Source of the DNA: Tubulanus polymorphus
Lineage: Eukaryota > Nemertea > Palaeonemertea > Tubulaniformes > Tubulanidae
Length of the DNA: 64,000 nucleotides
Assembly: GCF_964204645.1 (NCBI RefSeq)
Contig: NC_134032.1
Span: 15,122,275-15,186,274, forward strand
Direction: 5' to 3'
In this document: piece by piece, positions 13,271-57,071 of the stretch
Layout of the letters: the number at the start of each line of letters is the position of its first letter
Position numbering within the stretch: position 1 is the stretch's first letter
Position numbers and translations under genes: made by a program
The notes under the pieces: model-generated
What the model saw: the letters and a program-made list of their open reading frames with translations, nothing else
What the model was told of the DNA's origin: nothing
Databases searched by the model: none

Positions 13271-13342
13271 TTTCAGTGAAGGCATATTAGGTGCACATGA
13301 ACGTCTCATGCGTTCAAGGCACCTAATATCCCTTCACTGAAA
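13271..13342. other. Hairpin spanning the gene's stop codon
   Basis: An imperfect inverted repeat with arms of about 31 bp, each beginning TTTCAGTGAAGG at its outer edge, encloses a short loop. The minus-strand gene's last five codons and its TAG stop lie inside one arm. The same hairpin occurs at 33282-33353. Confidence 0.85.
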
Positions 13343-15309: not shown

Positions 15310-15340
<31 letters not shown>

Positions 15341-21300: not shown

Positions 21301-24300
21301 GATAGTAAACGCCACCTACACCGTGGCGCGTGATATTGCCGATGCGACTGTACCACACGCACACTACTCCCTGTGCCACAAATAACAAACTAATACAGAT
21401 AATCAGGTTCTAAAATGGATGCTTATTGCGAGCGTTGATAAAATGACTTCAATTAATGATGATGAAACAATCATTCCAGTCGTGCTAATATCAGACACGC
21501 GACGGGTGTGGCGAGACATGTGGTGCGGCGTGTGGCGGGGCATGTGGAGAGGCGTGTGGGGAGGCATGTGGCGCGTGTGGGGAGGCATGTGGCGCAGCGT
21601 GTGGGGACGGGTGTGGGGAGGGGTGTGGCGAGGCGTGTGGCGAGACATGTGGCGCGGCGTGTGGCGCAGCGTTTAGCGAGGCATGTGGGGAGACATGTGG
21701 CGGGGCGTGCGAGGAGGCATGTGGTGAGACATGTGGCGCGGCGTGTGGCGAGACATGTGGCGCAGCGTGTGGCGAGACATGTGGCGCGGCGTGGGGCAAG
21801 ACATGTGGCGAGGCGTTTAGCGAGGCATGTAGGGAGGTATGTGGGGAGACATGTGGCGCGGCGTGTGGCGAGACGTATGGTTCGGCGTGTAGCGAGGCGT
21901 GTGGGGAGGCATGTGGCGAGGCGTGTGGGGAGGTGTGTAGCGAGGCGTGTGGCGGGGCGTGTGGCGAGACATGTGGCGCGGCGTGTGGGGAGGCGTGTAG
22001 CGCAGCGTGTGGGGAGGCGTGTAGCGTGGCATGTGGGGAGGCGTGTGGGGAGGGGTGTGGGGAGGCGTTTAGCGAGGCGTGTGGGGAGGCATGTAGCGTG
22101 GCGTGTGGGGAGGCGTGTAGCGAGGCGTGTGGCGAGGCGTGTGGCGGGGCATGTGGGGAGGCGTGTAGCGCGGCGTGTGGGGAGGCGTGTAGCGTGGCAT
22201 GTGGGGAGGCGTGTGGGGAGGGGTGTGAGGTGGCGTTTAGCGAGGCGTGTGGAGAGGCATGTAGCGTGGCGTGTGGGGAGGCGTGCGGGGAGGCGTGTAG
22301 GGAGGCGCGCGGGGAGGCGTGTGGAGAGGGGTGTAGCGAGGCGTGATGCGCTTATACTCTAAAACATATATCAGTCATCTCTCTCCCTGGGGAGAAGTTA
22401 CACCGAGCTGCTAACAAGCGCTCAGGAGTTGCAGGTACCCATTTACTCCTGGGTGGAGAGAGGTGATGAGGATAAGTGTCTCGCGCGAGGACGCTACGGC
22501 AATGTACGGGGTTCGAATCAACGACCTGGATTCCCAGAGCCGCACCGCTCCACACAGAACACACACAGAAAACATCAAACTAGAATTATAACTTACCGGT
22601 CGTACGGGCGACAGCGGCACGGTAGAGTCAAGGTCAAATGTGGTGTTCTAGAAAAATAAAATGATTTTAAAGATTAAATCATGCATTTTCTCTGCCAGAA
22701 ACTGAATTCATCAAATCTATTAAATATTCCAGTGAGATGAATTGTAAAGAGCCCCCCGAGTATTAGGGTAATCAACAGACCCTCCACACAATTTGATGCA
22801 GTAAACCCGATTAAGGCGGTTTCTCTATTATTTGTCGTCATGCGTTGATATAGAATATTTTGTTTGTTACACAATATCCGGCCGGAACTAATAACCGAAT
22901 GCACTATAGTTCGGTCTTAACGTATTTCACGGTGTCGGCCATTTTGGAAATGGGTTGAAAACTACAGCGACCGGCGGCCGGGCAGCAGACACACTGATAG
23001 GTAACTTGTCGAATGTTCAGATTTTGGCAGCACGCGCTGAAGCTGCTCGTAATTCCCTTAGACACATAAGAGGGAATGGGAGTTTAGGATACTGACTGAT
23101 TGAAATATTTATACTTACGGGCGTCAGCCGCGGCGACTGCCTCCGATGAGGAGGAGCTCTACCCTAGAAACAACAATAATATAAACATAATTAGTCAAAT
23201 GCATTAAGGGTTGAATTTTCAAACATTTCTTATGCGATGTTTTTTATTTCAAAATCAAAATTTTATTTCAAAATTTGATGCACAATTTTTACATGATGTT
23301 AAATGTTCCTTAATAACACATACATTGGTGAAACAATGCGACATTTGGCCACAAGGGTAAAGGAGCATGGAACTTCGCCTTCAGCAATTAAGGAACATTT
23401 AACATCATGTAAAAATTGTGCGTCAAATTTTTCTTTAAAAAACAACTTTTCAATCGTTGATTCTGGAAAAAATGACTTTGAAATCACCATCAAAGAGGCA
23501 TTTTTTATTTCAACTTGTCGGTTTTAATCATTTTAAGCGAACAAAAAGTATTCCGGGATGGAATCCACGAATCAAGGTCCCCAGCGATGTGGCGCCGGTA
23601 TCGGGTCCCCAGCGATATGGCGCCCGTATCGGGTCCCCAGCGATATGGCGCCGGTATTGGGTCCCCAGCGATGTGGCGCCGCTATCGGGTCCCCAGCGAT
23701 GTGGCGCCCGTATCGGGTCCCCAGCGATATGGCGCCCGTATCGGGTCCCCAGCGATATGGCGCCCGTATCGGGTCCCCAGCGATGTGGCGCCCGTATCGG
23801 GTCCCCAGCGATGTGGCGCCCGTATCGGGTCCCCAGCGATGAGGGGCTTTTTCAGTTTCTTCATTTAATTAATTAGATCTCTGTTATTTCAACAAGAATC
23901 GTTTAGAGACCATTTATTTATTTGAGCATCTTTAAATTGTTCAATCAATGGAGCCTTGGATCCAGCCAGATTAAAAACCGACCCCTTACATACTCATCAA
24001 CCTAACAGGTGCAACAAACAGTAAAGGTTTTCAATATAAGGGATCGTTCAATTCTCCGTGCCTTGTTCTTAACCCTCCTACTCCTGTACGCACACGCATT
24101 ACAATAATGATTTTTACTTATATAAATGGTGGCTTTTATTGTTTAGAGCCGACCCTGATATGAGTATAAACAGTAACGAGGGGACTAGAGATACCGTACC
24201 CACTTGGGAAGTGGTCGCAAATACTCAACAATCTGACAATCTTTAAATTCAACGCCCCCTGGTGAATAATAAACCAAAGATATTGAAAATCAATAAAACC

Positions 24301-31842: not shown

Positions 31843-31869
31843 CACACCCTGTATACCGAGCATTGATTG

Positions 31870-32115: not shown

Positions 32116-32445
32116 AGATTAATACTAGCAGTTCCGTATCTAAATAAGAAATCAATCAGTCTTGTACTGTCACATTTCTACTTGACAATCGTCTAGTTAG
32201 ATAATTATCATAATATTCTATATCAACGCATGACAACTAATAATAGAGAAACCTCTCTAATCGGGTTTACTGCATCAAATTGTGTGGAGTATTTTAAACA
32301 GGGTCCTGAAGGGTCTGTTGATTACCCTAATCCTCAGAGGGCTCTTAACAGTTCATCTCACTGAAATATTTAATAGATTTGATGAATTCAGTTTGTCGCA
32401 GTGAAAATGCATGATTTAATCTTTAAAATCATTTTATTTTTCTAG

Positions 32446-33301
32446 AACACGACATTAGACTCTACTATACCGCTGTCGCCCGTACGACCGGTAAGTTATA
32501 ATTCTAGTTTGATGTTTTTCAGTACTGTAAGATGACAATGATGTATATCCCAAATAAATGTCTCATATTCGTGATCCTTAATAATTTTTCTTTTCATTTC
32601 AGCTGAAACTATAGCCAATGAATTGGCAAAGCAACAAGGAGAGTCTGAACAAGGCTACGAGGCAGCTACCCAACTTTGGGAAACAGTTATCAGCTGCACC
32701 AAAACGATAAATCCCACGCTGTCTCAACAGCCTGAGGAGCCAGCTCCACTAACCCCTGAGTTGGCTCCTTCGCAGGTGGTGGACCCTGTTTCGCCGGTGC
32801 AGGTGTTTATAGGTGTTTATTTGTTGAATCGCTGGTTTTCTCATTTTGATTTTTAATACTGATATTTAATTCTATGCTAAACAAATTTTTTATTTTTTCT
32901 CTTTACAGACACGACCACCGCCTAAAAAAACCAGATCAAAACGAAAAAGAAAAGTTGCGGTCGTCGTGGCTCCTCAGGGAGGGGAGGCAAGAGTAGCCCC
33001 TGCGGATGGTGCGGCTGACGAAGGTAATCGGGAGGAAGGGGAGGGGATAAATAGGAAGCGGCCGAGGAGGGATGGTGGTGGGGCTGGGGATGGTGCGGGT
33101 CCTGCTCCTCCTGCTCCTCCATCCGTATCTCGGGCAGTCACTCGTTCACTCGCCAAAAAGCTGGCGAGTGAACGAGTGGCCCGAGAGGTAGAGGTGGTGG
33201 CCCGGCATACGGATGGAATGTGGGAGGAGCGGCTGCGTTCTGGGACAATTCCGGATTTGTTGACTGATTTGAAAAATATTCTTTCAGTGAAGGGATATTA
33301 G
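32446..33301 (+). pseudogene. U0: 5'-truncated copy keeping the original last exon
   Basis: Exons with splice sites: 32446-32490 (matches left-arm exon 6), 32603-32802 (no left-arm counterpart; contains NELAKQQGESEQGYEAATQL) and 32909-33301 (matches left-arm exon 10, ending NILSVKGY). The start exon and exons 2-5 and 7-9 of the left-arm gene are absent. Exon 32446-32490 ends in phase 0 but the next exon needs an incoming phase of 1; a direct join meets a stop after three codons. The middle and last exons join in phase, so the source gene probably had another exon between. Likely non-functional unless a different upstream exon is used. Confidence 0.65.
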
Positions 33302-33353
33302 GTGCCTTGAACGCATGAGACGTTCATGTGCACCTAATATGCCTTCACTGAAA
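33282..33353. other. Hairpin spanning the stop codon, right arm
   Basis: Same inverted repeat as at 13271-13342, in the opposite orientation, again covering the codons for SVKGY and the stop. Confidence 0.85.
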
Positions 33354-33404
33354 AAAAATCAATTATAACATATACCCAAATGAATAACACACAACAGTTT
33401 CAAC

Positions 33405-33963
33405 AGCATTCTACAGTTCCACAGTTTGGTGCGTTTAATTACACATGGACTCAGTTCCACAGTTCGGTGCGTTTAATTATACCTGGACTCAGTTCCACAG
33501 TTCGGTGCGTTTAATTATACCTGGACTCAGTTCCACAGTTCGGTGCGTTTAATTACACCTGGACTCAGTTCCACAGTTCGGTGCGTTTAATTACACCTGG
33601 ACTCAGCTCCACAGTTCGGTGCGTTTAATTACACCTGGACTCAGCTCCACAGTTCGGTGCGTTTAATTACACCTGGACTCACTTCCACAGTTCGGTGCGT
33701 TTAATTACACCTGGACTCAGTTCCACAGTTCGGTGCATTTAATTACACCTGGATCCAGTTCCACAGTTCGGTGCGTTTAATTATACCTGGACTCAGTTCC
33801 ACAGTTCGATGCGTTTAATTACACCTGGACTCAGTTCCACAGTTCGGTGCGTTTAATTACACCTGGATCCAGTTCCACAGTTCGGTGCGTTTAATTACAC
33901 CTGGACTCAGTTCCACAGTTCGGTGCATTTAATTACACCTGGATCCAGTTCCACAGTTCGGTT
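33405..33963. repeat. 38-bp tandem array A, inverted copy, about 14 copies
   Basis: Reverse complement of the 38-bp unit at 11289-13212. It follows the U0 last exon at the same distance as in the left arm, then breaks off directly into the first 2.69-kb unit at about 33967. Confidence 0.95.
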
Positions 33964-34399
33964 TCCTCAAATTGGCGGCCATATTGAGCAGGGGTGTTTT
34001 TTGACTGTCGCAGCAAATTGCTTCTTTTAAATCTAGTAACATAGGTGTAATGTGGTCCACGATAACACGCTGTTGACAATCTAATTTTTCACTCTTCCAA
34101 TATGGCCGCCATTGCAGACATGTACAATCTTATCCATTAATGAATTAATTATAGTATTTTGAGTTTATCTTAATTTACATTTTTGAAGAGAAATCCATTA
34201 GTAGCCGAGGTGTCTGACTTGTACTCTACATTCTGTTGAGCGATTGTTACTAGATTCACCTGTTTATTAGTTACTTTATGTTCAGTACTCTACTGAGTGA
34301 ACCATATACAGGAATAATTGACTAAACTGTGCATGATTCATGTCTGATATAATAATCTATTTTCATATGATTTAATTGTTCTATTTATTTTTCTAGAAT

Positions 34400-35605
34400 A
34401 TGCCAAAAGCAAAAAAAAAATCGGTTTGTGGGCACGGGCGGCCCGGGCCGCTGACGTCAAGTCCTTCGGTAAGTTCAAATTTACTGCTTTCATGCTAATT
34501 TATTCATACTATGTTAGAAAACAAGTGTAAAAACAGGTAGAGTCAAAGTGTTCTGTTAAATAACACCGTTAATGAGACCAATGATAAACATGAACGAATT
34601 TGGTAACGTTTTGAATAAAATGGTATTTGAATTGAAGGATTCTAAAGCAATTTCACTTTCACTTCTCCTGGCACAATACAAATCCAAACAGCCTATTTTA
34701 CCATTATGGCCTGTATTTTGACACTTGTTTTCTCCCAAATATGACGAGGCCATCGCAAAATAAAGCGGTCACGGTGTAGGATGTCCCATAAGTCACATTT
34801 ATCATTGATTCTTTCCTGTATTTTACTCTTAATTGTTGAAATTCAAGAAAAATGCTATATTCTATTTTATCATCTTATTTTAAAGTCTAATTAAGGGGGA
34901 GGGGGAAGGGGAGGGGGAAAGTTGACATAAAAAACCTTGCATTAGAAATGCTTAAAAATTCAACCCTTAATGAATTTGACTAATTATGTTTATATTATTG
35001 TTGTTTCTAGGGTAAAGCTCCTCATCAGAGGCCGTCACCGAGATTGACGCCCGTAAGTATAAATATTTCAATCAGTCAGTATCCTAAACTCCCATTCCCT
35101 CTTATATGTCTAAGGGAATTATGAGCAGCTTCAGCGCGTGCTGCCAAAATCTGAACATTCGACATGGTAACTATTAAAGTGTCTGCCATGCCGTGGTAGC
35201 CCGGACGGAGGCGCCACAGGTTCAGGCTCCTGGCCCGCGCAGGTCGCCCCGGAAAAAACCGTAGGGAAGTCGACTCACGGGAGGTTTGGGGCATCTACAC
35301 ATAAGAAAAGAAAACGTGCGGCTCCTCCCCAACAGCCAGATGCTTCGGTGGAGTCGAGTGATGAGGAGTTGCCTACTGCACCTAGATCCTCACCGCCAGG
35401 GTCCTCACCACCAGCGCGACGACCTTCACCACCACCAAAAACAACTGCTCCGGCGGGGGTAGAACCCTCCCCCGTTGTAGAGCTCGTGCGTGGCCCTGGC
35501 TGGTCAAGGATAATTGAGTTTGACGACCCAATTACCTTGCTCTGCGACGTCGAAGGGGCATTCCAAGGGGAATATCAACTCATCAAGCGGAGGAGAACCC
35601 ATTGA
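34400..35605 (+). CDS. U1 chimeric three-exon ORF, unrecognised family
   Basis: Exons 34400-34468, 35011-35052 and 35243-35605, with GTAAGT-type donors and AG acceptors, join in phase 0 to give 157 residues. The N-terminus (MPKAKKKSVCGHGRPG) is homologous to the left-arm gene; the second exon (GKAPHQRPSPRLTP) is one codon shorter than its relatives. The third exon encodes a basic signal (KKRKR), an acidic patch (SSDEELPT), Pro-rich sequence and a less biased C-terminus containing GPGWSRIIEFDDPITLLCDV and ending KRRRTH. This exon has no match in the left-arm gene. The acceptor at 35241-35242 follows a weak pyrimidine tract, so the splice is inferred. Function unknown; a nuclear, DNA- or RNA-binding role would be guesswork from charge. 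Confidence 0.5.
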
Positions 35606-35849
35606 TTTGGTAAGAGTACATAGGAAGCAGCTGAGCTGATGGTGTTGGGGCTGGCGAGTGATCGAGTGGCCCGAGAGGTAGAGGTGGTGGCCTGGCATAC
35701 CGATGGAGAGTGGGAGGAGCGTTAATTACCCCAATACCCGGGGGGCTCTTTACGGTTCATCTCACCGACAAATTTAATAGATTTGATGAATTCAGTTTGT
35801 CGCAGTGAAAATGCACGATTTAATCTTTAAAATCATTTTATTTTTCTAG

Positions 35850-36556
35850 AACACGACATTAGACTCTACTATACCGCTGTCGCCCGTACGACCGGTAAGT
35901 TATAATTCTAGTTTGATGTTTTTCAGTACTGTAAGATGACAATGATGTATATCCCAAATAAATGTCTCATATTCGTGATCCTTAATAATTTTTCTTTTCA
36001 TTTCAGCTGAAACTATAGCCAATGAATTGGCAAAGCAACAAGGAGAGTCTGAACAAGGCTACGAGGCAGCTACCCAACTTTGGGAAACAGTTATCAGCTG
36101 CACCAAAACGATAAATCCCACGCTGTCTCAACAGCCTGAGGAGCCAGCTCCACTAACCCCTGAGTTGGCTCCTTCGCAGGTGGTGGACCCTGTTTCGCCG
36201 GTGCAGGTGTTTATAGGTGTTTATTTGTTGAATCGCTGGTTTTCTCATTTTGATTTTTAATACTGATATTTAATTCTATGCTAAACAAATTTTTTATTTT
36301 TTTCTCTTTACAGACACGACCACCGCCTAAAAAAACCAAAAGAAAAAGAAAAGTTGCGATCGTCGTGGCTCCTCAGGGAGGGGAGGCAAGAGTAGCCCCT
36401 GCGGATGGTGCGGCTGACGAAGGTAATCGGGAGGAAGGGGAGGGGATAAATAGGTAGCGGCCGAGGAGGGATGGTGGTGGGGCTGGGGATGGTGCGGGTC
36501 CTGCTCCTCCTGCTCCTCCATCCGTATCTCGGGCGGTCACTCGTTCACTCGCCAAA
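35850..36556 (+). pseudogene. U1 trailing exons of the older gene
   Basis: Exons at 35850-35894, 36007-36206 and from 36314 correspond to those of U0. They follow the stop codon of the U1 ORF. The last exon carries a TAG at about 36455-36457 that is absent from the other copies, and it is fused to the next unit after the codons for TRSLAK. These exons could be 3' UTR or relics. Confidence 0.6.
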
Positions 36557-37086
36557 CAATGTTGTTCCAGCACTACAGCATTGATCAGAAAGAGTCCGAG
36601 GGCGGATGTATGGTGTCTCCTAGCCGGCGGCCATATTTATAGTGAAGCCAAGGTCAAATTGGCGGCCATATTGAGCAGGGGTGTTTTTTGACTGTCGCAG
36701 CAAATTGCTTCTTTTAAATCCAGTAACATAGGTGTAATGTGGTCTACGATAACACGCTGTTGAAAATCTAATTTTTCACTCTTCCAATATGGCCGCCATT
36801 GCAGACATGTACAATCTTATCCATTAATGAATTAATTATAGTATTTTGAGTTTATCTTAATTTACATTTTTGAAGAGAAATCCATTAGTAGCCGAGGTGT
36901 CTGACTTGTACTCTACATTCTGTTGAGCGATTGTTACTAGATTCACCTGTTTATTAGTTACTTTATGTTCAGTACTCTACTGAGTGAACCATATACAGGA
37001 ATAATTGACTAAACTGTGCATGATTCATGTCTGATATAATAATCTATTTTCATATGATTTAATTGTTCTATTTATTTTTCTAGAAT

Positions 37087-38295
37087 ATGCCAAAAGCAAA
37101 AAAAAAATCGGTTTGTGGGCACGGGCGGCCCGGGCCGCTGACGTCAAGTCCTTCGGTAAGTTCAAATTTACTGCTTTCATGCTAATTTATTCATACTATG
37201 TTAGAAAACAAGTGTAAAAACAGGTAGAGTCAAAGTGTTCTGTTAAATAACACCGTTAATGAGACCAATGATAAACATGAACGAATTTGGTAACGTTTTG
37301 AATAAAATGGTATTTGAATTGAAGGATTCTAAAGCAATTTCACTTTCACTTCTCCTGGCACAATACAAATCCAAACAGCCTATTTTACCATTATGGCCTG
37401 TATTTTGACACTTGTTTTCTCCCAAATATGACGAGGCCATCGCAAAATAAAGCGTTCACGGTGTAGGATGTCCCATAAGTCACATTTATCATTGATTCTT
37501 TCCTGTATTTTACTCTTAATTGTTGAAATTCAAGAAAAATGCTATATTCTATTTTATCATCTTATTTTAAAGTCTAATTAAGGGGGAGGGGGAAGGGGAG
37601 GGGGAAAGTTGACATAAAAAACCTTGCATTAGAAATGCTTAAAAATTCAACCCTTAATGAATTTGACTAATTATGTTTATATTATTGTTGTTTCTAGGGT
37701 AGAGCTCCTCCTGCCTCAAGGCCGTCACCGCGGCTGACGCCCGTAAGTATAAATATTTCAATCAGTCAGTATCCTAAACTCCCATTCCCTCTTATATGTC
37801 TAAGGGAATTATGAGCAGCTTCAGCGCGTGCTGCCAAAATCTGAACATTCGACATGGTAACTATTAAAGTGTCTGCCATGCCGTGGTAGCCCGGACGGAG
37901 GCGCCACAGGTTCAGGCTCCTGGCCCGCGCAGGTCGCCCCGGAAAAAACCGTAGGGAAGTCGACTCACGGGAGGTTTGGGGCATCTACACATAAGAAAAG
38001 AAAACGTGCGGCTCCTCCCCAACAGCCAGATGCTTCGGTGGAGTCGAGTGATGAGGAGTTGCCTACTGCACCTAGATCCTCACCGCCAGGGTCCTCACCA
38101 CCAGCGCGACGACCTTCACCACCACCAAAAACAACTGCTCCGGCGGGGGTAGAACCCTCCCCCGTTGTAGAGCTCGTGCGTGGCCCTGGCTGGTCAAGGA
38201 TAATTGAGTTTGACGACCCAATTACCTTGCTCTGCGACGTCGAAGGGGCATTCCAAGGGGAATATCAACTCATCAAGCGGAGGAGAACCCATTGA
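37087..38295 (+). CDS. U2 chimeric three-exon ORF, 158 aa
   Basis: Exons 37087-37155, 37698-37742 and 37933-38295 join in phase 0 without a stop. The second exon encodes GRAPPASRPSPRLTP. The third exon matches that of U1. Splice donors are intact. The same caveats on the third exon's acceptor apply as for U1. Confidence 0.5.
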
Positions 38296-38499
38296 TTTGG
38301 TAAGAGTAAATAGGAAGCAGCTGAGCTGATGGGGCTGGCGAGTGATCGAGTGGCCCGAGAGGTAGAGGTGGTGGCCATGCACACCGATAGAGAGTGGGAG
38401 GAGCGTTAATTACCCCAATACCCGGAGGGGCTCTTTACGGTTCATCTCACCGACAAATTTAATAGATTTGATGAATTCAGTTTGTCGCAGTGAAAATGC

Positions 38500-39375
38500 A
38501 CGATTTAATCGTTAAAATCATTTTATCTTTCTAGAACACAACATTAGACTCGACAGTGCCGCTGTCGCCCGTACGACCGGTAAGTTATAATTCTAGTTTG
38601 ATGTTTTTCAGTACTGTAAGATGACAATGATGTATATCCCAAATAAATGTCTCATATTCATGATCCTTAATAATTTTTCTTTTCATTTCAGCTGAAACTA
38701 TAGCCAATGAATTAGCAAAACAACAAGGAGAGTCTGAACAAGGCTACGAGGCAGCTACCCAACTTTGGGAAACAGTTATCAGCTGCACCAAAACGATAAA
38801 TCCCAAGCTGTCTCAACAGCCTGAGGAGCCAGCTCCACTAACCCCTGAGTTGGCTCCTTCGCAGGTGGTGGACCCTGTTTCGCCGGTGCAGGTGTTTATA
38901 GGTGTTTATTTGTTGAATCGCTGGTTTTCTCATTTTGATTTTTAATACTGATATTTAATTCTATGCTAAACAAATTTTTTATTTTTTCTCTTTACAGACA
39001 CGACCACCGCCTAAAAAAACCAAAAGAAAAAGAAAAGTTGCGATCGTCGTGGCTCCTCAGGGAGGGGAGGCAAGAGTAGCCCCTGCGGATGGTGCGGCTG
39101 ACGAAGGTAATCGGGAGGAAGGGGAGGGGATAAATAGGAAGCGGCCGAGGAGGGATGGTGGTGGGGCTGGGGATGGTGCGGGTCCTGCTCCTCCTGCTCC
39201 TCCATCCGTATCTCGGGCGGTCACTCGTTCACTCGCCAAACAATGTTGTTCCAGCACTACAGCATTGATCAGAAAGAGTCCGAGGGCGGATGTATGGTGT
39301 CTCCTAGCCGGCGGCCATATTTATAGTGAAGCCAAGGTCAAATTGGCGGCCATATTGAGCAGGGGTGTTTTTTGA
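38500..39375 (+). pseudogene. U2 trailing exons and fused tail
   Basis: Contains the exon matching left-arm exon 6 (near 38535), the NELAKQQGESE exon (ending near 38890) and the last exon from about 38998. After codons for TRSLAK the frame runs through the unit junction into former intron DNA, adding 44 codons that end ILSRGVF. The same fused tail is seen in U3-U6. Confidence 0.6.
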
Positions 39376-39776
39376 CTGTCGCAGCAAATTGCTTCTTTTA
39401 AATCTAGTAACATAGGTGTAATGTGGTCCACGATAACACGCTGTTGACAATCTAATTTTTCACTCTTCCAATATGGCCGCCATTGCAGACATGTACAATC
39501 TTATCCATTAATGAATTAATTATAGTATTTTGAGTTTATCTTAATTTACATTTTTGAAGAGAAATCCATTAGTAGCCGAGGTGTCTGACTTGTACTCTAC
39601 ATTCTGTTGAGCGATTGTTACTAGATTCACCTGTTTATTAGTTACTTTATGTTCAGTACTCTACTGAGTGAACCATATACAGGAATAATTGACTAAACTG
39701 TGCATGATTCATGTCTGATATAATATCTATAATCTATTTTCATATGATTTAATTGTTCTATTTATTTTTCTAGAAT

Positions 39777-40986
39777 ATGCCAAAAGCAAACAAAAAATCG
39801 GTTTGTGGGCACGGGCGGCCCGGGCCGCTGACGTCAAGTCCTTCGGTAAGTTCAAATTTACTGCTTTCATGCTAATTTATTCATACTATGTTAGAAAACA
39901 AGTGTAAAAACAGGTAGAGTCAAAGTGTTCTGTTAAATAACACCGTTAATGAGACCAATGATAAACATGAACGAATTTGGTAACGTTTTGAATAAAATGG
40001 TATTTGAATTGAAGGATTCTAAAGCAATTTCACTTTCACTTCTCCTGGCACAATACAAATCCAAACAGCCTATTTTACCATTATGGCCTGTATTTTGACA
40101 CTTGTTTTCTCCCAAATATGACGAGGCCATCGCAAAATAAAGCGGTCACGGTGTAGGATGTCCCATAAGTCACATTTATCATTGATTCTTTCCTGTATTT
40201 TACTCTTAATTGTTGAAATTCAAGAAAAATGCTATATTCTATTTTATCATCTTATTTTAAAGTCTAATTAAGGGGGAGGGGGAAGGGGAGGGGGAAAGTT
40301 GACATAAAAAACCTTGCATTAGAAATGCTTAAAAATTCAACCCTTAATGAATTTGACTAATTATGTTTATATTATTGTTGTTTCTAGGGTAGAGCTCCTC
40401 CTGCCTCAAGGCCGTCACCGCGGCTGACGCCCGTAAGTATAAATATTTCAATCAGTCAGTATCCTAAACTCCCATTCCCTCTTATATGTCTAAGGGAATT
40501 ATGAGCAGCTTCAGCGCGTGCTGCCAAAATCTGAACATTCGACATGGTAACTATTAAAGTGTCTGCCATGCCGTGGTAGCCCGGACGGAGGCGCCATAGG
40601 GTTCAGGCTCCTGGCCCGCGCAGGTCGCCCCGGAAAAAACCGTAGGGAAGTCGACTCACGGGAGGTTTGGGGCATCTACACATAAGAAAAGAAAACGTGC
40701 GGCTCCTCCCCAACAGCCAGATGCTTCGGTGGAGTCGAGTGATGAGGAGTTGCCTACTGCACCTAGATCCTCACCGCCAGGGTCCTCACCACCAGCGCGA
40801 CGACCTTCACCACCACCAAAAACAACTGCTCCGGCGGGGGTAGAACCCTCCCCCGTTGTAGAGCTCATGCGTGGCCCTGGCTGGTCAAGGATAATTGAGT
40901 TTGACGACCCAATTACCTTGCTCTGCGACGTCGAAGGGGCATTCCAAGGGGAATATCAACTCATCAAGCGGAGGAGAACCCATTGA
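39777..40986 (+). CDS. U3 chimeric three-exon ORF, 158 aa
   Basis: Exons 39777-39845, 40388-40432 and 40624-40986 join in phase 0 without a stop. The start exon reads MPKANKKS, nearer to the left-arm gene than U1/U2. A base insertion (GCCATAGGGTTC) lies just upstream of the third exon's acceptor and does not touch the frame if that acceptor is used. In this unit the trailing NELAKQQGESE exon has a stop at about 41520-41522. Confidence 0.5.
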
Positions 40987-42473
40987 TTTGGTAAGAGTAC
41001 ATAGGAAGCAGCTGAGCTGATGGTGATGGGGCTGGCGAGTGATCGAGTGGCCCGAGAGGTAGAGGTGGTGGCCTGGCATACCGATGGAGAGTGGGAGGAG
41101 CGTTAATTACCCCAATACCCGGAGGGGCTCTTTACGGTTCATCTCACCGACAAATTTAATAGATTTGATGAATTCAGTTTGTCGCAGTGAAAATGCACGA
41201 TTTAATCTTTAAAATCATTTTATTTTTCTAGAACACAACATTAGACTCGACAGTGCCGCTGTCGCCCGTACGACCGGTAAGTTATAATTCTAGTTTGATG
41301 TTTTTCAGTACTGTAAGATGACAATGATGTATATCCCAAATAAATGTCTCATATTCGTGATCCTTAATAATTTTTCTTTTCATTTCAGCTGAAACTATAG
41401 CCAATGAATTGGCAAAGCAACAAGGAGAGTCTGAACAAGGCTACGAGGCAGCTACCCAACTTTGGGAAACAGTTATCAGCTGCACCAAAACGATAAATCC
41501 CAATTTGTCTCAACAGCCTTAGGAGCCAGCTCCACTAACCCCTGAGTTGGCTCCTTCGCAGGTGGTGGACCCTGTTTCGCCGGTGCAGGTGTTTATAGGT
41601 GTTTATTTGTTGAATCGCTGGTTTTCTCATTTTGATTTTTAATACTGATATTTAATTCTATGCTAAACAAATTTTTCATTTTTTCTCTTTACAGACACGA
41701 CCACCGCCAAAAAAAACCAGATCAAAACGAAAAAGAAAAGTTGCGGTCGTCGTGGCTCCGCAGGGAGGGGGAGCAAGAGTGGTCCCGGCGGATGGTGCGG
41801 CTGACGAAGGTAATCGGGAGGAAGGGGAGGGGATAAATAGGAAGCGGCCGAGGAGGGATGGTGGTGGGGCTGGGGATGGTGCGGGTCCTGCTGCTCCTGC
41901 TCCTCCATCCGTATCTCGGGCGGTCACTCGTTCACTCGCCAAACAATGTTGTTCCAGCACTACAGCATTGATCAGAAAGAGTCCGAGGGCGGATGTATGG
42001 TGTCTCCTAGCCGGCGGCCATATTTATAGTGAAGCCAAGGTCAAATTGGCGGCCATATTGAGCAGGGGTGTTTTTTGACTGTCGCAGCAAATTGCTTCTT
42101 TTAAATCTAGTAACATAGGTGTGATGTGGTCCACGATAACACGCTGTTGACAATCTAATTTTTCACTCTTCCAATATGGCCGCCATTGCAGACATGTACA
42201 ATCTTATCCATTAATGAATTAATTATAGTATTTTGAGTTTATCTTAATTTACATTTTTGAAGAGAAATCCATTAGTAGCCGAGGTGTCTGACTTGTACTC
42301 TACATTCTGTTGAGCGATTGTTACTAGATTCACCTGTTTATTAGTTACTTTATGTTCAGTACTCTACTGAGTGAACCATATACAGGAATAATTGACTAAA
42401 CTGTGCATGATTCATGTCTGATATAATAATCTATTTTCATATGATTTAATTGTTTTATTTATTTTTCTAGATT

Positions 42474-43684
42474 ATGCCAAAAGCAAGTAGAAAATCTGTG
42501 GGTGGGCGCGGGCGGCCCGGGCCGCTGACGTAGAGTCCTTCGGTAAGTTCAAATTTACTGCTTTCATGCTAATTTATTCATACTATGTTAGAAAACAAGT
42601 GTAAAAACAGGTAGAGTCAAAGTGTTATGTTAAATAACACCGTTAATGAGACCAATGATAAACATGAACGAATTTGGTAACGTTTTGAATAAAATGGTAT
42701 TTGAATTGAAGGATTCTAAAGCAATTTCACTTTCACTTCTCCTGGCACAATACAAATCCAAACAGCCTATTTTACCATTATGGCCTGTATTTTGACACTT
42801 GTTTTCTCCCAAATATGACGAGGCCATCGCAAAATAAAGCGGTCACGGTGTAGGATGTCCCATAAGTCACATTTATCATTGATTCTTTCCTATATTTTAC
42901 TCTTAATTGTTGAAATTCAAAAAAAAAATGCTATATTCTATTTTATCATCTTATTTTAAAGTCTAATTAAGGGGGAGGGGGAAGGGGAGGGGGAAAGTTG
43001 ACATAAAAAACCTTGCATTAGAAATGCTTAAAAATTCAACCCTTAATGAATTTGACTAATTATGTTTATATTATTGTTGTTTCTAGGGTAGAGCTCCTCC
43101 TGCCTCAAGGCCGTCACCGCGGATGACGCCCGTAAGTATAAATATTTCAATCAGTCAGTATCCTAAACTCCCATTCCCTCTAATAGGTCTAAGGGAATTA
43201 TGAGCAGCTTCAGCGCGTGCTGCCAAAATCTGAACATTCGACATGGTAACTATTTAAGTGTCTGCCATGCCGTGGTAGCCCGGACGGAGGCGCCACAGGT
43301 TCAGGCTCCTGGCCCGCGCAGGTCGCCCCGGAAAAAACCGTAGGGAAGTCGACTCACGGGAGGTTTGGGGCATCTACACATAAGAAAAGAAAACGTGCGG
43401 CTCCTCCCCAACAGCCAGATACTTCGGTGGAGTCGAGTGATGAGGAGTTGCCTACTGCACCTAGATCCTCACCGCCAGGGTCCTCACCACCAGCGCGACG
43501 ACCTTCACCACCACCAAAAACAACTGCTCCGGCGGGGGTAGAACACTCCCCCGTTGTAGAGCTCGTGCGTGGCCCTGGCTGGTCAAGGATAATTGAGTTT
43601 GACGACCCAATTACCTTGCTCTGCGACGTCGAAGGGGCATTCCAAGGGGAATATCAACTCATCAAGCGGAGGAGAACCCATTGA
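42474..43684 (+). pseudogene. U4 chimeric ORF with early stop
   Basis: The start exon (42474-42542) reads MPKASRKSVGGRGRPGPLT and then TAG, where U1-U3 have TCA. The second (43087-43131) and third (43322-43684) exons are open. The same start exon has several other differences (SRKSVGGRG), more than the rest of the unit. Confidence 0.65.
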
Positions 43685-45170
43685 TTTGGTAAGAGTACAT
43701 AGGAAGCAGCTGAGCTGATGGTGATGGGGCTGGCGAGTGATCGAGTGGCCCGAGAGGTAGAGGTGGTGGCCTGGCATACCGATGGAGAGTGGGAGGAGCG
43801 TTAATTACCCCAATACCCGGGGGGCTCTTTACGGTTCATCTCACCGACAAATTTAATAGATTTGATGAATTCAGTTTGTCGCAGTGAAAATGCACGATTT
43901 AATCTTTAAAATCATTTTATTTTTCTAGAACACAACATTAGACTCTACAGTGCCGCTGTCGCCCGTACGACCGGTAAGTTATAATTCTAGTTTGATGTTT
44001 TTCAGTACTGTAAGATGACAATGATGTATATCCCAAATAAATGTCTCATATTCGTGATCCTTAATAATTTTTCTTTTCATTTCAGCTGAAACTATGGCCA
44101 ATGAATTGGCAAAGCAACAAGGAGAGTCTGAACAAGGCTACGAGGCAGCTACCCAACTTTGGGAAACAGTTATCAGCTGCACCAAAACGATAAATGCCAC
44201 GCTGTCTCAACAGCCTGAGGAGCCAGCAACACTAACCCCTGAGTTGGCTCCTTCGCAGGTGGTTGACCCTGTTTCGCCGGTGCAGGTGTTTATAGGTGTT
44301 TATTTGTTGAATCGCTGGTTTTCTCATTTTGATTTTTAATACTGATATTTAATTCTATGCTAAACAAATTTTTTATTTTTTCTCTTTACAGACACGACCA
44401 CCGCCAAAAAAAACCAGATCAAAACGAAAAAGAAAAGTTGCGGTCGTCGTGGCTCCGCAGGGAGGAGGAGCAAGAGTGGTCCCGGCGGATGGTGCGGCTG
44501 ACGAAGGTAATCGGGAGGAAGGGGAGGGGATAAATAGGAAGCGGCCGAGGAGGGATGGTGGTGGGGCTGGGGATGGTGCGGGTCCTGCTCCTCCTGCTCC
44601 TCCATCCGTATCTCGGGCGGTCACTCGTTCACTCGCCAAACAATGTTGTTCCAGCACTACAGCATTGATCAGAAAGAGTCCGAGGGCGGATGTATGGTGT
44701 CTCCTAGCCGGCGGCCATATTTATAGTGAAGCCAAGGTCAAATTGGCGGCCATATTGAGCAGGGGTGTTTTTTGACTGTCGCAGCAAATTGCTTCTTTTA
44801 AATCTAGTAACATAGGTGTAATGTGGTCCACGATAACACGCTGTTGACAATCTAATTTTTCACTCTTCCAATATGGCCGCCATTGCAGACATGTACAATC
44901 TTATCCATTAATGAATTAATTATAGTATTTTGAGTTTATCTTAATTTACATTTTTGAAGAGAAATCCATTAGTAGCCGAGGTGTCTGACTTGTACTCTAC
45001 ATTCTGTTGAGCGATTGTTACTAGATTCACCTGTTTATTAGTTACTTTATGTTCAGTACTCTACTGAGTGAACCATATACAGGAATAATTGACTAAACTG
45101 TGCATGATTCATGTCTGATATAATAATCTATTTTCATATGATTTAATTGTTCTATTTATTTTTCTAGAAT

Positions 45171-46375
45171 ATGCCAAAAGCAAAAAAAAAATCCGTTGGC
45201 GGGCGCGGGCGGCCCGGGCCGCTGACGTCAAGTCCTTCGGTTCAAATTTACTGCTTTCATGCTAATTTATTCATACTATGTTAGAAAACAAGTGTAAAAA
45301 CAGGTAGAGTCAAAGTGTTCTGTTAAATAACACCGTTAATGAGACCAATGATAAACATGAACGAATTTGGTAACGTTTTGAATAAAATGGTATTTGAATT
45401 GAAGGATTCTAAAGCAATTTCACTTTCACTTCTCCTGGCACAATACAAATCCAAACAGCCTATTTTACCATTATGGCCTGTATTTTGACACTTGTTTTCT
45501 CCCAAATATGACGAGGCCATCGCAAAATAAAGCGGTCACGGTGTAGGATGTCCCATAAGTCACATTTATCATTGATTCTTTCCTGTATTTTACTCTTAAT
45601 TGTCGAAATTCAAGAAAAATGCTATATTCTATTTTATCATCTTATTTTAAAGTCTAATTAAGGGGGAGGGGGAAGGGGAGGGGGAAAGTTGACATAAAAA
45701 ACCTTGCATTAGAAATGCTTAAAAATTCAACCCTTAATGAATTTGACTAATTATGTTTATATTATTGTTGTTTCTAGGGTAGAGCTCCTCCTGCCTCAAG
45801 GCCGTCACCGCGGCTGACGCCCGTAAGTATAAATATTTCAATCAGTCAGTATCCTAAACTCCCATTCCCTCTTATATGTCTAAGGGAATTATGAGCAGCT
45901 TCAGCGCGTGCTGCCAAAATCTGAACATTCGACATGGTAACTATTAAAGTGTCTGCCATGCCGTGGTAGCCCTGACGGAGGCGCCACAGGTTCAGGCTCC
46001 TGGCCCGCGCAGGTCGCCCCGGAAAAAACCGTAGGGAAGTCGACTCACGGGAGGTTTGGGGCATCTACACATAAGAAAAGAAAACGTGCGGCTCCTCCCC
46101 AACAGCCAGATACTTCGGTGGAGTCGAGTGATGAGGAGTTGCCTACTGCACCTAGATCCTCACCGCCAGGGTCCTCACCACCAGCGCGACGACCTTCACC
46201 ACCACCAAAAACAACTGCTCCGGCGGGGGTAGAACACTCCCCCGTTGTAGAGCTCATGCGTGGCCCTGGCTGGTCAAGGATAATTGAGTTTGACGACCCA
46301 ATTACCTTGCTCTGCGACGTCGAAGGGGCATTCCAAGGGGAATATCAACTCATCAAGCGGAGGAGAACCCATTGA
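45171..46375 (+). pseudogene. U5 chimeric ORF without first donor
   Basis: The start exon is followed by CCTTCGGTTCAAAT: the GTAAG of the donor is missing, a 5-base deletion relative to U1-U4. The second (45778-45822) and third (46013-46375) exons are open. Without another donor the first exon cannot splice normally. Confidence 0.6.
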
Positions 46376-47855
46376 TTTGGTAAGAGTACATAGGAAGCAG
46401 CTGAGCTGATGGTGATGGGGCTGGCGAGTGATCGAGTGGCCCGAGAGGTAGAGGTGGTGGCCTGGCATACCGATGGAGAGTGGGAGGAGCGTTAATTACC
46501 CCAATACCCGGGGGGCTCTTTACGGTTCATCTCACCGACAAATTTAATAGATTTGATGAATTCAGTTTGTCGCAGTGAAAATGCACGATTTAATCTTTAA
46601 AATCATTTTATTTTTCTAGAACACGACATTAGACGACACTATACCGCTGTCGCCCGTACGACCGGTAAGTTATAATTCTAGTTTGATGTTTTTCAGTACT
46701 GTAAGATGACAATGATGTATATCCCAAATAAATGTCTCATATTCGTGATCCTTAATAATTTTTCTTTTCATTTCAGCTGAAACTATAGCCAATGAATTGG
46801 CAAAGCAACAAGGAGAGTCTGAACAAGGCTACGAGGCAGCTACCCAACTTTGGGAAACAGTTATCAGCTGCACCAAAACGATAAATCCCACGCTGTCTCA
46901 ACAGCCTGAGGAGCCAGCTCCACTAACCCCTGAGTTGGCTCCTTCGCAGGTGGTGGACCCTGTTTCGCCGGTGCAGGTGTTTATAGGTGTTTATTTGTTG
47001 AATCGCTGGTTTTCTCGTTTTGATTTTTAATACTGATATTTAATTCTATGCTAAACAAATTTTTTATTTTTTCTCTTTACAGACACGACCACCGCCTAAA
47101 AAAACCAAAAGAAAAAGAAAAGTTGCGGTCGTCGTGGCTCCTCAGGGAGGGGAGGCAAGAGTAGCCCCTGCGGATCGTGCGGCTGACGAAGGTAATCGGG
47201 AGGAAGGGGAGGGGATAAATAGGAAGCGGCCGAGGAGGGATGGTGGTGGGGCTGGGGATGGTGCGGGTCCTGCTCCTCCTGCTCCTCCATCCGTATCTCG
47301 GGCGGTCACTCGTTCACTCGCCAAACAATGTTGTTCCAGCACTACAGCATTGATCAGAAAGAGTCCGAGGGCGGATGTATGGTGTCTCCTAGCCGGCGGC
47401 CATATTTATAGTGAAGCCAAGGTCAAATTGGCGGCCATATTGAGCAGGGGTGTTTTTTGACTGTCGCAGCAAATTGCTTCTTTTAAATCTAGTAACATAG
47501 GTGTAATGTGGTCCACGATAACACGCTGTTGACAATCTAATTTTTCACTCTTCCAATATGGCCGCCATTGCAGACATGTACAATCTTATCCATTAATGAA
47601 TTAATTATAGTATTTTGAGTTTATCTTAATTTACATTTTTGAAGAGAAATCCATTAGTAGCCGAGGTGTCTGACTTGTACTCTACATTCTGTTGAGCGAT
47701 TGTTACTAGATTCACCTGTTTATTAGTTACTTTATGTTCAGTACTCTACTGAGTGAACCATATACAGGAATAATTGACTAAACTGTGCATGATTCATGTC
47801 TGATATAATAATCTATTTTCATATGATTTAATTGTTCTATTTATTTTTCTAGAAT

Positions 47856-49060
47856 ATGCCAAAAGCAAAAAAAAAATCGGTTTGTGGGCACGGGCGGCCC
47901 GGCCCGCTTACGTCAAGTCCTTCGGTTCAAATTTACTGCTTTCATGCTTATTTATTCATACTATGTTAGAAAACAAGTGTAAAAACAGGTAGAGTCAAAG
48001 TGTTCTGTTAAATAACACCGTTAATGAGACCAATGATAAACATGAACGAATTTGGTAACGTTTTGAATAAAATGGTATTTGAATTGAAGGATTCTAAAGC
48101 AATTTCACTTTCACTTCTCCTGGCACAATACAAATCCAAACAGCCTATTTTACCATTATGGCCTGTATTTTGACACTTGTTTTCTCCCAAATATGACGAG
48201 GCCATCGCAAAATAAAGCGGTCACGGTGTAGGATGTCCCATAAGTCACATTTATAATTGATTCTTTCCTGAATTTTACTCTTAATTGTTGAAATTCAAGA
48301 AAAATGCTATATTCTATTTTATCATCTTATTTTAAAGTCTAATTAAGGGGGAGGGGGAAGGGGAGGGGGAAAGTTGACATAAAAATCCTTGCATTAAAAA
48401 TGCTTAAAAATTCAACCCTTAATGAATTTGACTAATTATGTTTATATTATTGTTGTTTCTAGGGTAGAGCTCCTCCTGCCTCAAGGCCGTCACCGCGGCT
48501 GACGCCCGTAAGTATAAATATTTCAATCAGTCAGTATCCTAAACTCCCATTCCCTCTTATATGTCTAAGGGAATTATGAGCAGCTTCAGCGCGTGCTGCC
48601 AAAATCTGAACATTCGACATGGTAACTATTAAAGTGTCTGCCATGCCGTGGTAGCCCGGACGGAGGCGCCACAGGTTCAGGCTCCTGGCCCGCGCAGGTC
48701 GCCCCGGAAAAAACCGTAGGGAAGTCGACTCACGGGAGGTTTGGGGCATCTACACATAAGAAAAGAAAACGTGCGGCTCCTCCCCAACAGCCAGATACTT
48801 CGGTGGAGTCGAGTGATGAGGAGTTGCCTACTGCACCTAGATCCTCACCACCAGGGTCTTCACCACCAGCGCGATGACCTTCACCACCACCAAAAACAAC
48901 TGCTCCGGCCGGGGTAGAACCCTCCCCCGTTGTAGAGCTCGTGCGTGGCCCTGGCTGGTCAAGGATAATTGAGTTTGACGACCCAATTACCTTGCTCTGC
49001 GACGTTGAAGGGGCATTCCAAGGGGAATATCAACTCATCAAGCGGAGGAGAACCCATTGA
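47856..49060 (+). pseudogene. U6 chimeric ORF: lost donor and stop
   Basis: Shares the 5-base donor deletion with U5, so the two are sisters or the deletion spread by conversion. The third exon (48698-49060) also has CGA changed to TGA near 48874, within the codons corresponding to PPARRPSPPP. Confidence 0.7.
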
Positions 49061-50534
49061 TTTGGTAAGAGTACATAGGAAGCAGCTGAGCTGATGGTGA
49101 TGGGGCTGGCGAGTGATCGAGTGGCCCGAGAGGTAGAGGTGGTGGCCTGGCATACCGATGGAGAGTGGGAGGAGCGTTAATTACCCCAATACCCGGGGGG
49201 CTCTTTACGGTTCATCTCACCGACAAATTTAATAGATTTGATGAATTCAGTTTGTCGCAGTGAAAATGCACGATTTAATCTTTAAAATCATTTTATTTTT
49301 CTAGAACACAACATTAGACGACACTATACCGCTGTCGCCCGTACGACCGGTAAGTTATAATTCTAGTTTGATGTTTTTCAGTACTGTAAGATGACAATGA
49401 TGTATATCCCAAATAAATGTCTCATATTCGTGATCCTTAATAATTTTTCTTTTCATTTCAGCTGAAACTATAGCCAATGAATTGGCAAAGCAACAAGGAG
49501 AGTCTGAACAAGGCTACGAGGCAGCTACCCAACTTTGGGAAACAGTTATCAGCTGCACCAAAACGATAAATCCCACGCTGTCTCAACAGCCTGAGGAGCC
49601 AGCTCCACTAACCCCTGAGTTGGCTCCTTCGCAGGTGGTGGACCCTGTTTCGCCGGTGCAGGTGTTTATAGGTGTTTATTTGTTGAATCGCTGATTTTCT
49701 CATTTTGATTTTTAATACTGATATTTAATTCTATGCTAAACAAATTTTTTATTTTTTCTCTTTACAGACACGACCACCGCCTAAAAAAACCAAAAGAAAA
49801 GTTGCGGTCGTCGTGGCTCCTCAGGGAGGGGAGGCAAGAGTAGCCCCTGCGGATGGTGCGGCTGACGAAGGTAATCGGGAGGAAGGGGAGGGGATAAATA
49901 GGAAGCGGCCGAGGAGGGATGGTGGTGGGGCTGGGGATGGTGCGGGTCCTGCTCCTCCTGCTCCTCCATCCGTATCTCGGGCGGTCACTCGTTCACTCGC
50001 CAAACAATGTTGTTCCAGCACTACAGCATTGATCAGAAAGAGTCCGAGGGCGGATGTATGGTGTCTCCAAGCCGGCGGCCATATTTATAGTGAAGCCAAG
50101 GTCAAATTGGCGGCCATATTGAGCAGGGGTGTTTTTTGACTGTCGCAGCAAATTGCTTCTTTTAAATCTAGTAACATAGGTGTAATGTGGTCCACGATAA
50201 CACGCTGTTGACAATCTAATTTTTCACTCTTCCAATATGGCCGCCATTGCAGACATGTACAATCTTATCCATTAATGAATTAATTATAGTATTTTGAGTT
50301 TATCTTAATTTACATTTTTGAAGAGAAATCCATTAGTAGCCGAGGTGTCTGACTTGTACTCTACATTCTGTTGAGCGATTGTTACTAGATTCACCTGTTT
50401 ATTAGTTACTTTATGTTCAGTACTCTACTGAGTGAACCATATACAGGAATAATTGACTAAACTGTGCATGATTCATGTCTGATATAATAATCTATTTTCA
50501 TATGATTTAATTGTTCTATTTATTTTTCTAGAAT

Positions 50535-50690
50535 ATGCCAAAAGCAAAAAAAAATCAGTTTGTGGGCACGGGCGGCCCGGCCCGCTTACGTCAAGTCCTT
50601 CGGTAAGTTCAAATTTACTGCTTTCATGCTAATTTATTCATACTATATTAGAAAACAAGTGTAAAAACAGGTACAGTCAAAGCCCCTGCT
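50535..50690 (+). pseudogene. U7 partial unit, start exon frameshifted
   Basis: The poly-A run after MPKAK is one base shorter, which shifts the frame of the start exon. The donor GTAAGT is present. Similarity to the other units ends near 50680, inside the following intron, which marks the right end of the array. Confidence 0.65.
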
Positions 50691-55290: not shown

Positions 55291-55299
55291 AAAATATGT

Positions 55300-57060: not shown

Positions 57061-57071
57061 TTAAGTAGGCC

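What the first reader, a model, noticed from the sequence alone, without database searches (positions are those of the whole stretch)
33967..50690. 2.69-kb tandem units that each carry a small chimeric gene
Each unit's start exon and second exon come from the left-arm gene family, while the long third exon (C-terminus ...GEYQLIKRRRTH) has no counterpart there. Three units (U1-U3) can encode an intact 157-158 residue product. This looks like a new gene made by rearrangement and then amplified.
Basis: partly seen in the sequence, partly recalled or inferred. Interest (0 to 1): 0.85.

Follow-up and report, generated by a model that had tools for sequence, protein, structure and literature searches.

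The report
Scrambled gene array with hypervariable exons
Six near-identical tandem copies of a patchwork built from two multi-copy gene families in an unnamed, probably animal genome; the proposed fusion gene is possible but unproven, and the surprise is that small family exons differ far more between copies than the DNA touching them.

Summary
The array is real: six units of 2,679-2,703 bp, 98.0-99.1% alike, plus a partial seventh of about 580 bp. The third exon (X3) does have counterparts: it is the displaced 3' half of a terminal exon of a second family found on ten contigs; its 5' half lies further downstream in each unit. Against X3 as a regular exon: its acceptor has 2 T of 15 (10-12 in the unit's five other acceptors) and X3 varies like non-coding DNA (8/363 versus 34/1699 sites). 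E1, E2 and a family exon downstream of X3 (E3) vary at 27/156 sites (p=1.5e-14), so the main transcript more likely runs E1-E2-E3-KGY' and skips X3. Against that: KGY' lacks its family's conserved C-terminus. The excess recurs in E1 copies on C6, C3 and C8: pS 0.36, pN 0.08 (26 copies) against 0.011-0.015 in flanks, with sharp edges; it is weaker in E2, E3 and EDF and absent in the KGY exon. Best fit: gene conversion homogenises everything except exons whose differences are retained, as in primate opsins; an mRNA-templated process is not excluded. No expression data were available.

The parts
33967..36653 (+). array unit U1
   Evidence: self-comparison, unit alignment
36654..39337 (+). array unit U2
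39338..42040 (+). array unit U3
42041..44737 (+). array unit U4 (stop codon in E1)
44738..47422 (+). array unit U5 (E1 donor lacks GTAA)
47423..50101 (+). array unit U6 (E1 donor lacks GTAA; stop in X3)
50102..50682 (+). partial seventh unit joining the right flank
34400..34468 (+). E1 of U1, start exon (MPKAKKKSVCGHGRPGPLTSSPS); hypervariable between units
   Evidence: 12/69 variable sites; homologue on left arm 26342-26274 minus
35011..35052 (+). E2 of U1; hypervariable between units (mostly U1 against the other five)
   Evidence: 8/42 variable sites plus a 3-bp indel; left-arm homologue 23163-23119 minus
35186..35607 (+). block derived from the 3' half of the terminal exon of the second (RRRTR) family
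   Evidence: about 89% identical to L001, L002, L003
35243..35605 (+).
   Evidence: 8/363 variable sites, p=0.84 against non-coding
35650..35721 (+). displaced fragment of the KGY-family terminal exon
   Evidence: 93% identical to 33160-33231
35850..35894 (+). E3, family exon downstream of X3; hypervariable between units
   Evidence: 7/45 variable sites
36007..36212 (+). AETIA block: 5' half of the RRRTR-family exon, placed downstream of its own 3' half
36314..36580 (+). KGY', truncated copy of the KGY-family terminal exon (family homology ends at about 36556)
   Evidence: the U3/U4 version carries C6-type variants
13326..26342 (-). left-arm KGY-family gene copy: E1 26342-26274, E2 23163-23119, E3 22647-22597, EDF exon about 14630-14397, KGY exon 13715-13326; a complete gene model was not established for this copy
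32317..33301 (+). divergently oriented piece outside the array with E3, AETIA and an intact KGY exon
   Evidence: 32317-33157 is 97% identical to 35721-36556; open frame 32870-33301

Best explanation
The array is a six-fold tandem amplification of a scrambled cassette assembled from two dispersed multi-copy gene families, called here KGY and RRRTR after their C-termini. Shown: the mosaic make-up, a paralogous segment without the array, the 98% homogeneity of the array, and an excess of variation confined to E1, E2 and E3. Inferred: amplification by unequal crossing-over; homogenisation of the rest by frequent gene conversion; retention of copy-specific exon sequence because conversion across exon differences is selected against (or blocked by mismatch), which also preserves linked synonymous differences. 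On this reading the units are, or recently were, KGY-family genes spliced E1-E2-E3-KGY' (176-180 codons open in four units, splice sites intact in two of these). X3 is a displaced relic of an RRRTR-family exon lying in the intron between E2 and E3, skipped or used only in a minority of transcripts.
For: Mosaic and permuted order. Variable sites in the array: E1 12/69, E2 8/42, E3 7/45 against 34/1699 non-coding (p=6e-8, 4e-6, 5e-5); E1-E3 together against X3 p=3e-9; X3 against non-coding p=0.84. Edges: 27 substitution sites in E1-E3 (156 bp) against 4 in the 150 bp adjoining them, the 4-bp donor deletion of U5/U6 not counted. Acceptors: 10-12 T of 15 in the unit's other five, 2 of 15 for X3. 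KGY is a plausible gene family: a C6 copy gives a 269-residue, five-exon open reading frame; one search lists 28 matches to its whole E1 region. Replication: of 27 copies fetched, 26 without a gap give E1 pS 0.359 and pN 0.080, flank diversity being 0.011 and 0.015 (27 copies). Recombination in intron 1 of nine C6 copies: 300 of 528 informative site pairs fail the four-gamete test. U3 and U4 KGY' carry C6-type variants in an otherwise C8-type unit. Precedent for exon peaks of divergence under conversion: PMC3213168 (abstract and outline), PMC3924837 (passages).
Against: KGY' lacks the last 47 or so residues, conserved to C9/C11 relatives, so its product may be defective; U1 truncates it (99 residues), U4 stops in E1, U5/U6 lack the E1 donor. 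KGY' (13/267) and AETIA (11/202) exceed non-coding DNA (p=0.009, 0.006) but not X3 significantly (p=0.075, 0.051), and much of the KGY' excess is one block shared by U3 and U4. Conversion plus selection should give divergence that tapers into the flanks; the edges are sharp (0 sites in the 25 bp before and 1 in the 25 bp after E1). E1 pN/pS of 0.22 shows no net protein-level diversification. Low variation does not show that X3 is non-coding: the KGY exon, coding in the C6 gene model, varies at 13/393 sites in 11 copies, less than its intron. Between the left arm and the 16.3-Mb paralogue E2 and EDF show no clear excess.
Confidence: 0.5

Rival explanations
1. One reading: E1-E2-X3 is a genuine new chimeric gene, amplified in tandem; X3 supplies a basic segment and the conserved RRRTR C-terminus, replacing the C-terminus that KGY' has lost.
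For: Open frame with intact E1/E2 splice sites in U1, U2, U3; the two indels in the 84-codon tail of X3 are in frame and pN/pS of that tail against L001/L002 is 0.35; weak resemblance between the RRRTR and KGY C-termini; E2-X3 junction not seen elsewhere.
Against: T-poor acceptor inside ancestral coding sequence; X3 varies like non-coding DNA while E3 beyond it varies like an exon; upstream of the tail the block is frameshifted against the parent in most units and holds a stop in the parent frame; the Ala of VELVARGPGW, invariant in 12 of 12 parent copies aligned, is missing; changes assigned to the array lineage split 4 nonsynonymous to 4 synonymous, too few to decide.
Confidence: 0.22
2. The exon-confined variation comes from a process acting on mature mRNA: either error-prone copying of cDNA back into the exons, or selection on the RNA sequence itself, for example escape from small RNAs.
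For: Sharp edges at splice sites, with two variable bases of the 5' UTR before ATG inside the variable stretch; synonymous diversity of E1 24-32 times that of its flanks with pN/pS 0.22; transition/transversion 0.61 in E1 against 1.41 in its flanks, pairwise counts that are not independent; multi-base codon swaps, one of which makes a stop codon in U4.
Against: The KGY exon varies little in 11 copies although it is in the same predicted mRNA; the EDF excess (18/45 in 11 copies) falls to 5/45 without two copies; intron 1 is a mosaic, so ordinary exchange is active; opsins show the same kind of pattern with gene conversion and selection as the explanation.
Confidence: 0.17
3. The whole array is a dead cluster and the exon differences are inherited from old gene copies.
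For: U4, U5 and U6 have a lesion in E1, its donor or X3, and U1 has one in KGY'; the surroundings are full of gene fragments.
Against: All units share the E2-X3 junction, so they descend from one cassette; an exon-only excess is not expected of neutral DNA of 98% identity.
Confidence: 0.11

Closest known systems
Sdic tandem gene family of Drosophila melanogaster (PMC7475035, abstract and outline read; that Sdic is a chimeric gene is recalled and supported only by the search listing)
   Same: a lineage-specific gene family in a tandem array with widespread gene conversion and copies that differ in their 3' ends
   Different: Sdic affects sperm competition and all 31 annotated copies have coding potential (abstract); here no expression evidence exists, and the proposed fusion exon has a poor acceptor and non-coding-like variation
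Primate L/M opsin pair: exon peaks of divergence under gene conversion (PMC3213168 abstract and outline; PMC3924837 passages)
   Same: duplicated genes whose introns are homogenised while exon divergence stays high
   Different: two genes with known functional residues; here dozens of copies on several contigs, E1 synonymous diversity 24-32 times the flanks, very sharp edges, unknown function
Snake venom phospholipase A2 genes with exons evolving faster than introns (recalled, not looked up)
   Same: introns more conserved than coding exons between paralogues
   Different: there nonsynonymous change dominates, as recalled; here E1 has pN/pS of 0.22

Membership tests
Sdic-like amplified chimeric gene | tandem copies that share one rearrangement junction | tested here: met
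   all six units share the junction at 35186 and equivalents, not crossed by any other match listed; the one at 36212 also occurs outside the array at 32808
Sdic-like amplified chimeric gene | open reading frame across the fusion in most copies | tested here: inconclusive
   open with intact E1/E2 splice sites in 3 of 6 units
Sdic-like amplified chimeric gene | transcription of the chimeric product | not testable with these tools
   no RNA data; species unnamed
Exon divergence peaks under gene conversion (opsin type) | exon divergence, synonymous sites included, above intron divergence | tested here: met
   array E1-E3 pS 0.09-0.15 against non-coding 0.007; C6/C3/C8 E1 pS 0.359 against 0.011-0.015; not met for the KGY exon
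Exon divergence peaks under gene conversion (opsin type) | frequent conversion or recombination among copies | tested here: met
   300 of 528 site pairs fail the four-gamete test in 9 copies; C6-type segment in U3/U4
Exon divergence peaks under gene conversion (opsin type) | selection for different functions of the copies | not testable with these tools
   function unknown; no Pfam match above cut-off for the products scanned
KGY family (defined here) | MPKA start exon and small exons in phase | tested here: met
KGY family (defined here) | conserved C-terminus EVEVVARxxxGxWEE...GY | tested here: not met
   KGY' in the units ends before it and runs into the unit junction
RRRTR family (defined here) | undivided terminal exon with AESIA...VELVARGPGW...RRR | tested here: not met
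   the two halves are separated and in reverse order in the units; the Ala invariant in 12 copies is missing

The most novel reading that the evidence does not exclude
A eukaryotic gene family has a germline process that rewrites the 5' exons of its copies through their mature mRNA (reverse-transcribed, error-prone exchange), leaving introns untouched and the protein largely intact; the array U1-U6 is one of its products.
Probability: 0.1. Interest if true: 0.95.

Novelty: new variant of a known kind. Interest (0 to 1): 0.55.

Why it matters
The original point, a new gene by rearrangement and amplification, becomes a precise splice-choice question: does E2 join X3 or E3? The larger point is that copies about 98-99% identical carry a start exon differing at up to a fifth of its sites, with synonymous diversity 24-32 times that of the touching DNA and edges at the splice sites. 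That is an extreme form of conversion-resistant exon islands or, less likely, a sign of an mRNA-level diversification process. With dozens of copies in one assembled genome it can be tested directly by population and parent-offspring sequencing.

Tried and rejected
Tried without result: tRNA scan of the window, none; Rfam on 30-52 kb, three matches, all far below their gathering scores; Pfam, no family above cut-off for the KGY- and RRRTR-family products scanned; PDB by sequence with the L007 exon, best E 1.2; COX1 search in G000 to place the organism, no match; SSU rRNA search failed with a machine error and was not repeated. TTAGGG repeats were found, for example near an end of C1; the species was not identified, and 'animal' is inferred from the genome and a GPCR gene.

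Considered and rejected: that X3 is unique; that protein-level positive selection alone explains the exon variation (E1 pN 0.080 below pS 0.359; E2 is closer to it: pN 0.124 and pS 0.158 in 19 copies, 0.065 and 0.045 in 17); that L051, whose E1 differs at 13 of 63 sites from L038 despite identical flanks, proves exon-only transfer: its intron 1 is closest to two (L063, L055) of the four copies compared that share its E1 type, and no closer to the other two than to L038, so a short exchange is possible but exon precision is not shown. Homology of the KGY and RRRTR C-termini is suggestive only (hhalign E 0.31 full length, 0.017 C-terminus with probability 2.7%; shuffles reached the score in 14 to 896 of 5000 for six pairs). 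The EDF- and KGY-like exons of C9/C11 relatives show no exon excess in 8 copies; their N-terminal exons were not fetched. The parent exon of X3 shows no clear excess between L007 and L008 (17/756 exon against 16/903 and 7/452 flanks). E1-E3 peptides gave no convincing match near the seven RRRTR loci searched.

Results against an exon-only rule: the EDF excess depends on two of 11 copies; its intron holds a 200-bp stretch with 80 variable sites, 8 without L070 and L072 (L072 alone differs from the reference there at 77), and the remaining intron varies at 37/513 and 40/396 sites, more than the KGY exon (13/393). E3 of the C6/C3/C8 copies varies at 13/85 sites in 19 copies and 5/85 in 17, besides repeat-length changes.

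Rows dropped: L039 (1-bp deletion in E1) is left out of pN/pS, so 26 of 27 copies entered; one of the 28 full-length E1 matches (C6:666942) was not fetched; E2/E3 figures are given with and without L092 and L093; L016 did not enter for want of the anchor motif. Paper searches for conserved introns with hypervariable or accelerated exons gave none and one search listed six papers of which only the opsin one was opened; absence from print is not claimed.

Full report
The window is G000:C8:15122275-15186274, in a 268-Mb genome of 77 contigs, probably animal (a rhodopsin-type GPCR gene lies at 60026-61123; TTAGGG repeats occur, for example, near an end of C1). The names KGY and RRRTR are mine, after the C-termini of the two protein families; E1, E2, E3, EDF, AETIA, KGY' and X3 are also my labels.

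The array. Self-comparison gives six complete units of 2,679-2,703 bp and a partial seventh, 50102-50682. Pairwise identity is 98.0-99.1%. Each unit is a patchwork: a stretch 95% identical to the inverted left-arm block 26570-26106 (E1), one 91% identical to 23252-22985 (E2), a block 35186-35607 without counterpart elsewhere in the window, a displaced KGY fragment (35650-35721), and a stretch 97% identical to 32317-33157 that carries E3, AETIA and the start of a KGY exon.

Where the third exon comes from. The block 35186-35607 is about 89% identical to copies at C8:15.017, 15.899 and 16.331 Mb and 71-74% to copies on C1, C2, C4, C5 and C11. There it is the 3' half of one exon that ends in a stop codon: in L002 a 240-residue open frame, in the other loci examined 222-324 residues, some cut by the ends of the fetched stretch; the copies in L001 and L003 are interrupted. 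The 5' half of that exon is present in the array unit too, but downstream (36007-36212): the order is permuted. A protein search with the L002 exon lists 135 exon-wise matches on C1-C6 and C8-C11, many near contig ends (a bias to ends was not tested). No match listed other than the six units crosses the junction at 35186; 40 of 142 candidates were scored there.

A related segment without the array. C8:16,303,000-16,342,500 is collinear with much of window 1-54.3 kb, most blocks 92-99% identical. Window 31108-50306 corresponds there to 4.7 kb, which holds pieces of the same kinds in another order, some of them more than once, but no six-fold array.

The gene family behind E1 and E2. One search lists 27 full-length, open KGY exons on C6 (18, between 0.65 and 1.75 Mb) and C3 (9, between 0.42 and 1.33 Mb), others on C8, and diverged relatives on C9 and C11; an EDF-like match also occurs on C12. 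One C6 copy reads as a five-exon gene of 269 residues in one frame. No Pfam family matches above cut-off.

Exon-confined variation. Among U1-U6, variable sites are 12/69 in E1, 8/42 in E2, 7/45 in E3, 13/267 in KGY', 11/202 in AETIA, 8/363 in X3 and 34/1699 in the remaining DNA. Against the remainder: E1+E2+E3 p=1.5e-14, AETIA 0.006, KGY' 0.009, X3 0.84. Against X3: E1+E2+E3 p=3e-9, AETIA 0.051, KGY' 0.075. In the 25 bp on each side of E1, E2 and E3 there are 4 variable sites in 150 bp, the 4-bp donor deletion of U5/U6 not counted.

Replication. One search listed 28 matches covering the whole E1 region; 27 were fetched. E1 has 24/63 variable sites against 28/387 in the flanks (p=1e-9); pS 0.359 and pN 0.080 (26 copies) against flank diversity 0.011 and 0.015; 0 variable sites in the 25 bp before the acceptor and 1 in the 25 bp from the donor on. 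E2 in 19 copies (the C6 reference and 18 fetched): 20/39 variable sites against 4 and 1 in the adjoining 25 bp; without two diverged copies 7/39 against 2 and 1. E3: 13/85 in 19 copies, 5/85 in 17, against 2 and 0, 1 and 0. EDF in 11 copies: 18 of its first 45 bp vary, 5 without L070 and L072; the rest of EDF 8/185, the KGY exon 13/393, the intron between them 37/513, 80/200 and 40/396 in three stretches, the second owing mainly to one copy, L072. So the effect is strong in E1, clear but smaller in E2, modest in E3 and EDF and absent in KGY. Window left arm against the 16.3-Mb paralogue: E1 8/68 against 3/334 in the flanks; E2 2/45 against 8/178; E3 1/45 plus a 6-bp indel against 5/187; EDF 11/234 against 14/400; KGY 10/384 against 1/200.

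What this says about the proposed gene. E3 clearly does not, KGY' weakly so; X3 does. Model E1-E2-E3-KGY' is in phase with T-rich acceptors and is open for 178, 180, 178 and 176 codons in U2, U3, U5 and U6 (99 in U1, 19 in U4), though U5 and U6 have lost part of the E1 donor. Against it, KGY' lacks about 47 C-terminal residues with 24 columns invariant across 8 aligned sequences, C9/C11 relatives included. X3 would supply the RRRTR C-terminus, but without an Ala that is invariant in 12 of 12 aligned parent copies. The tail of X3 against L001 or L002 has 9 synonymous and 9 nonsynonymous differences (pS 0.139, pN 0.049); codon changes assigned to the array lineage are 4 and 4, with 3 unassigned: undecided.

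Mechanism. Intron 1 of nine C6 copies is a mosaic (300 of 528 informative site pairs fail the four-gamete test), and U3/U4 carry a C6-type stretch in KGY': exchange between copies is active. Conversion plus retention of exon differences explains high exon and low intron divergence, as argued for primate opsins (abstract of PMC3213168; passages of PMC3924837). The sharp edges, the transversion-rich exon changes (Ts/Tv 0.61 against 1.41) and pN/pS of 0.22 in E1 are not what that model predicts most simply, so an mRNA-level process stays open at low probability.

Verdict. The array is real and its origin by rearrangement and amplification well supported. The chimeric E1-E2-X3 gene is possible (about 0.2) but not the best reading; transcript data would decide. 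The exon-confined variation was not part of the finding and is the more surprising result.

Noticed in passing
G000:C6:650000-1752000 and C3:404000-1327000 (L031, L032, L037-L055, L057-L071, L073-L092, L103-L111): 27 full-length open copies of a KGY-family terminal exon, on C6 often 30-36 or about 60 kb apart, with scrambled fragments, many on the opposite strand, in the same regions; start exon hypervariable, intron 1 about 1% different.
   Followed up: partly
L009 (G000:C1:31520000-31523500): A tandem array with a 134-bp period, 14 listed copies of which 67 bp match the X3 block at 81-85%: a piece of the RRRTR-family exon has become a satellite.
   Followed up: no
C8:16303000-16342500 (L011, L012, L003, L004, L013): A collinear paralogue of much of the window 1.2 Mb away, most blocks 92-99% identical, without the six-fold array.
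   Followed up: yes
window:60026-61123: Single open frame of 365 residues matching rhodopsin-type GPCRs (7tm_1, E 4.4e-14).
   Followed up: no
window:1-57064: Many minisatellites, e.g. 8002-10162 (40 bp x 54), 11287-13212 (38 bp x 51), 55297-57064 (35 bp x 50); TRF masks 31% of the window.
   Followed up: no
window: just after 45239 and 47924 (equivalents of 34469 in U5 and U6): U5 and U6 share a 4-bp loss of GTAA at the E1 donor, suggesting common descent or copying.
   Followed up: partly
window:34397-34399 and equivalents; C6/C3/C8 E1 copies L037-L063: ATG follows the E1 acceptor by 3 bases, or by none in four copies, so the 5' UTR may come from an upstream exon or a trans-spliced leader.
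   Followed up: no
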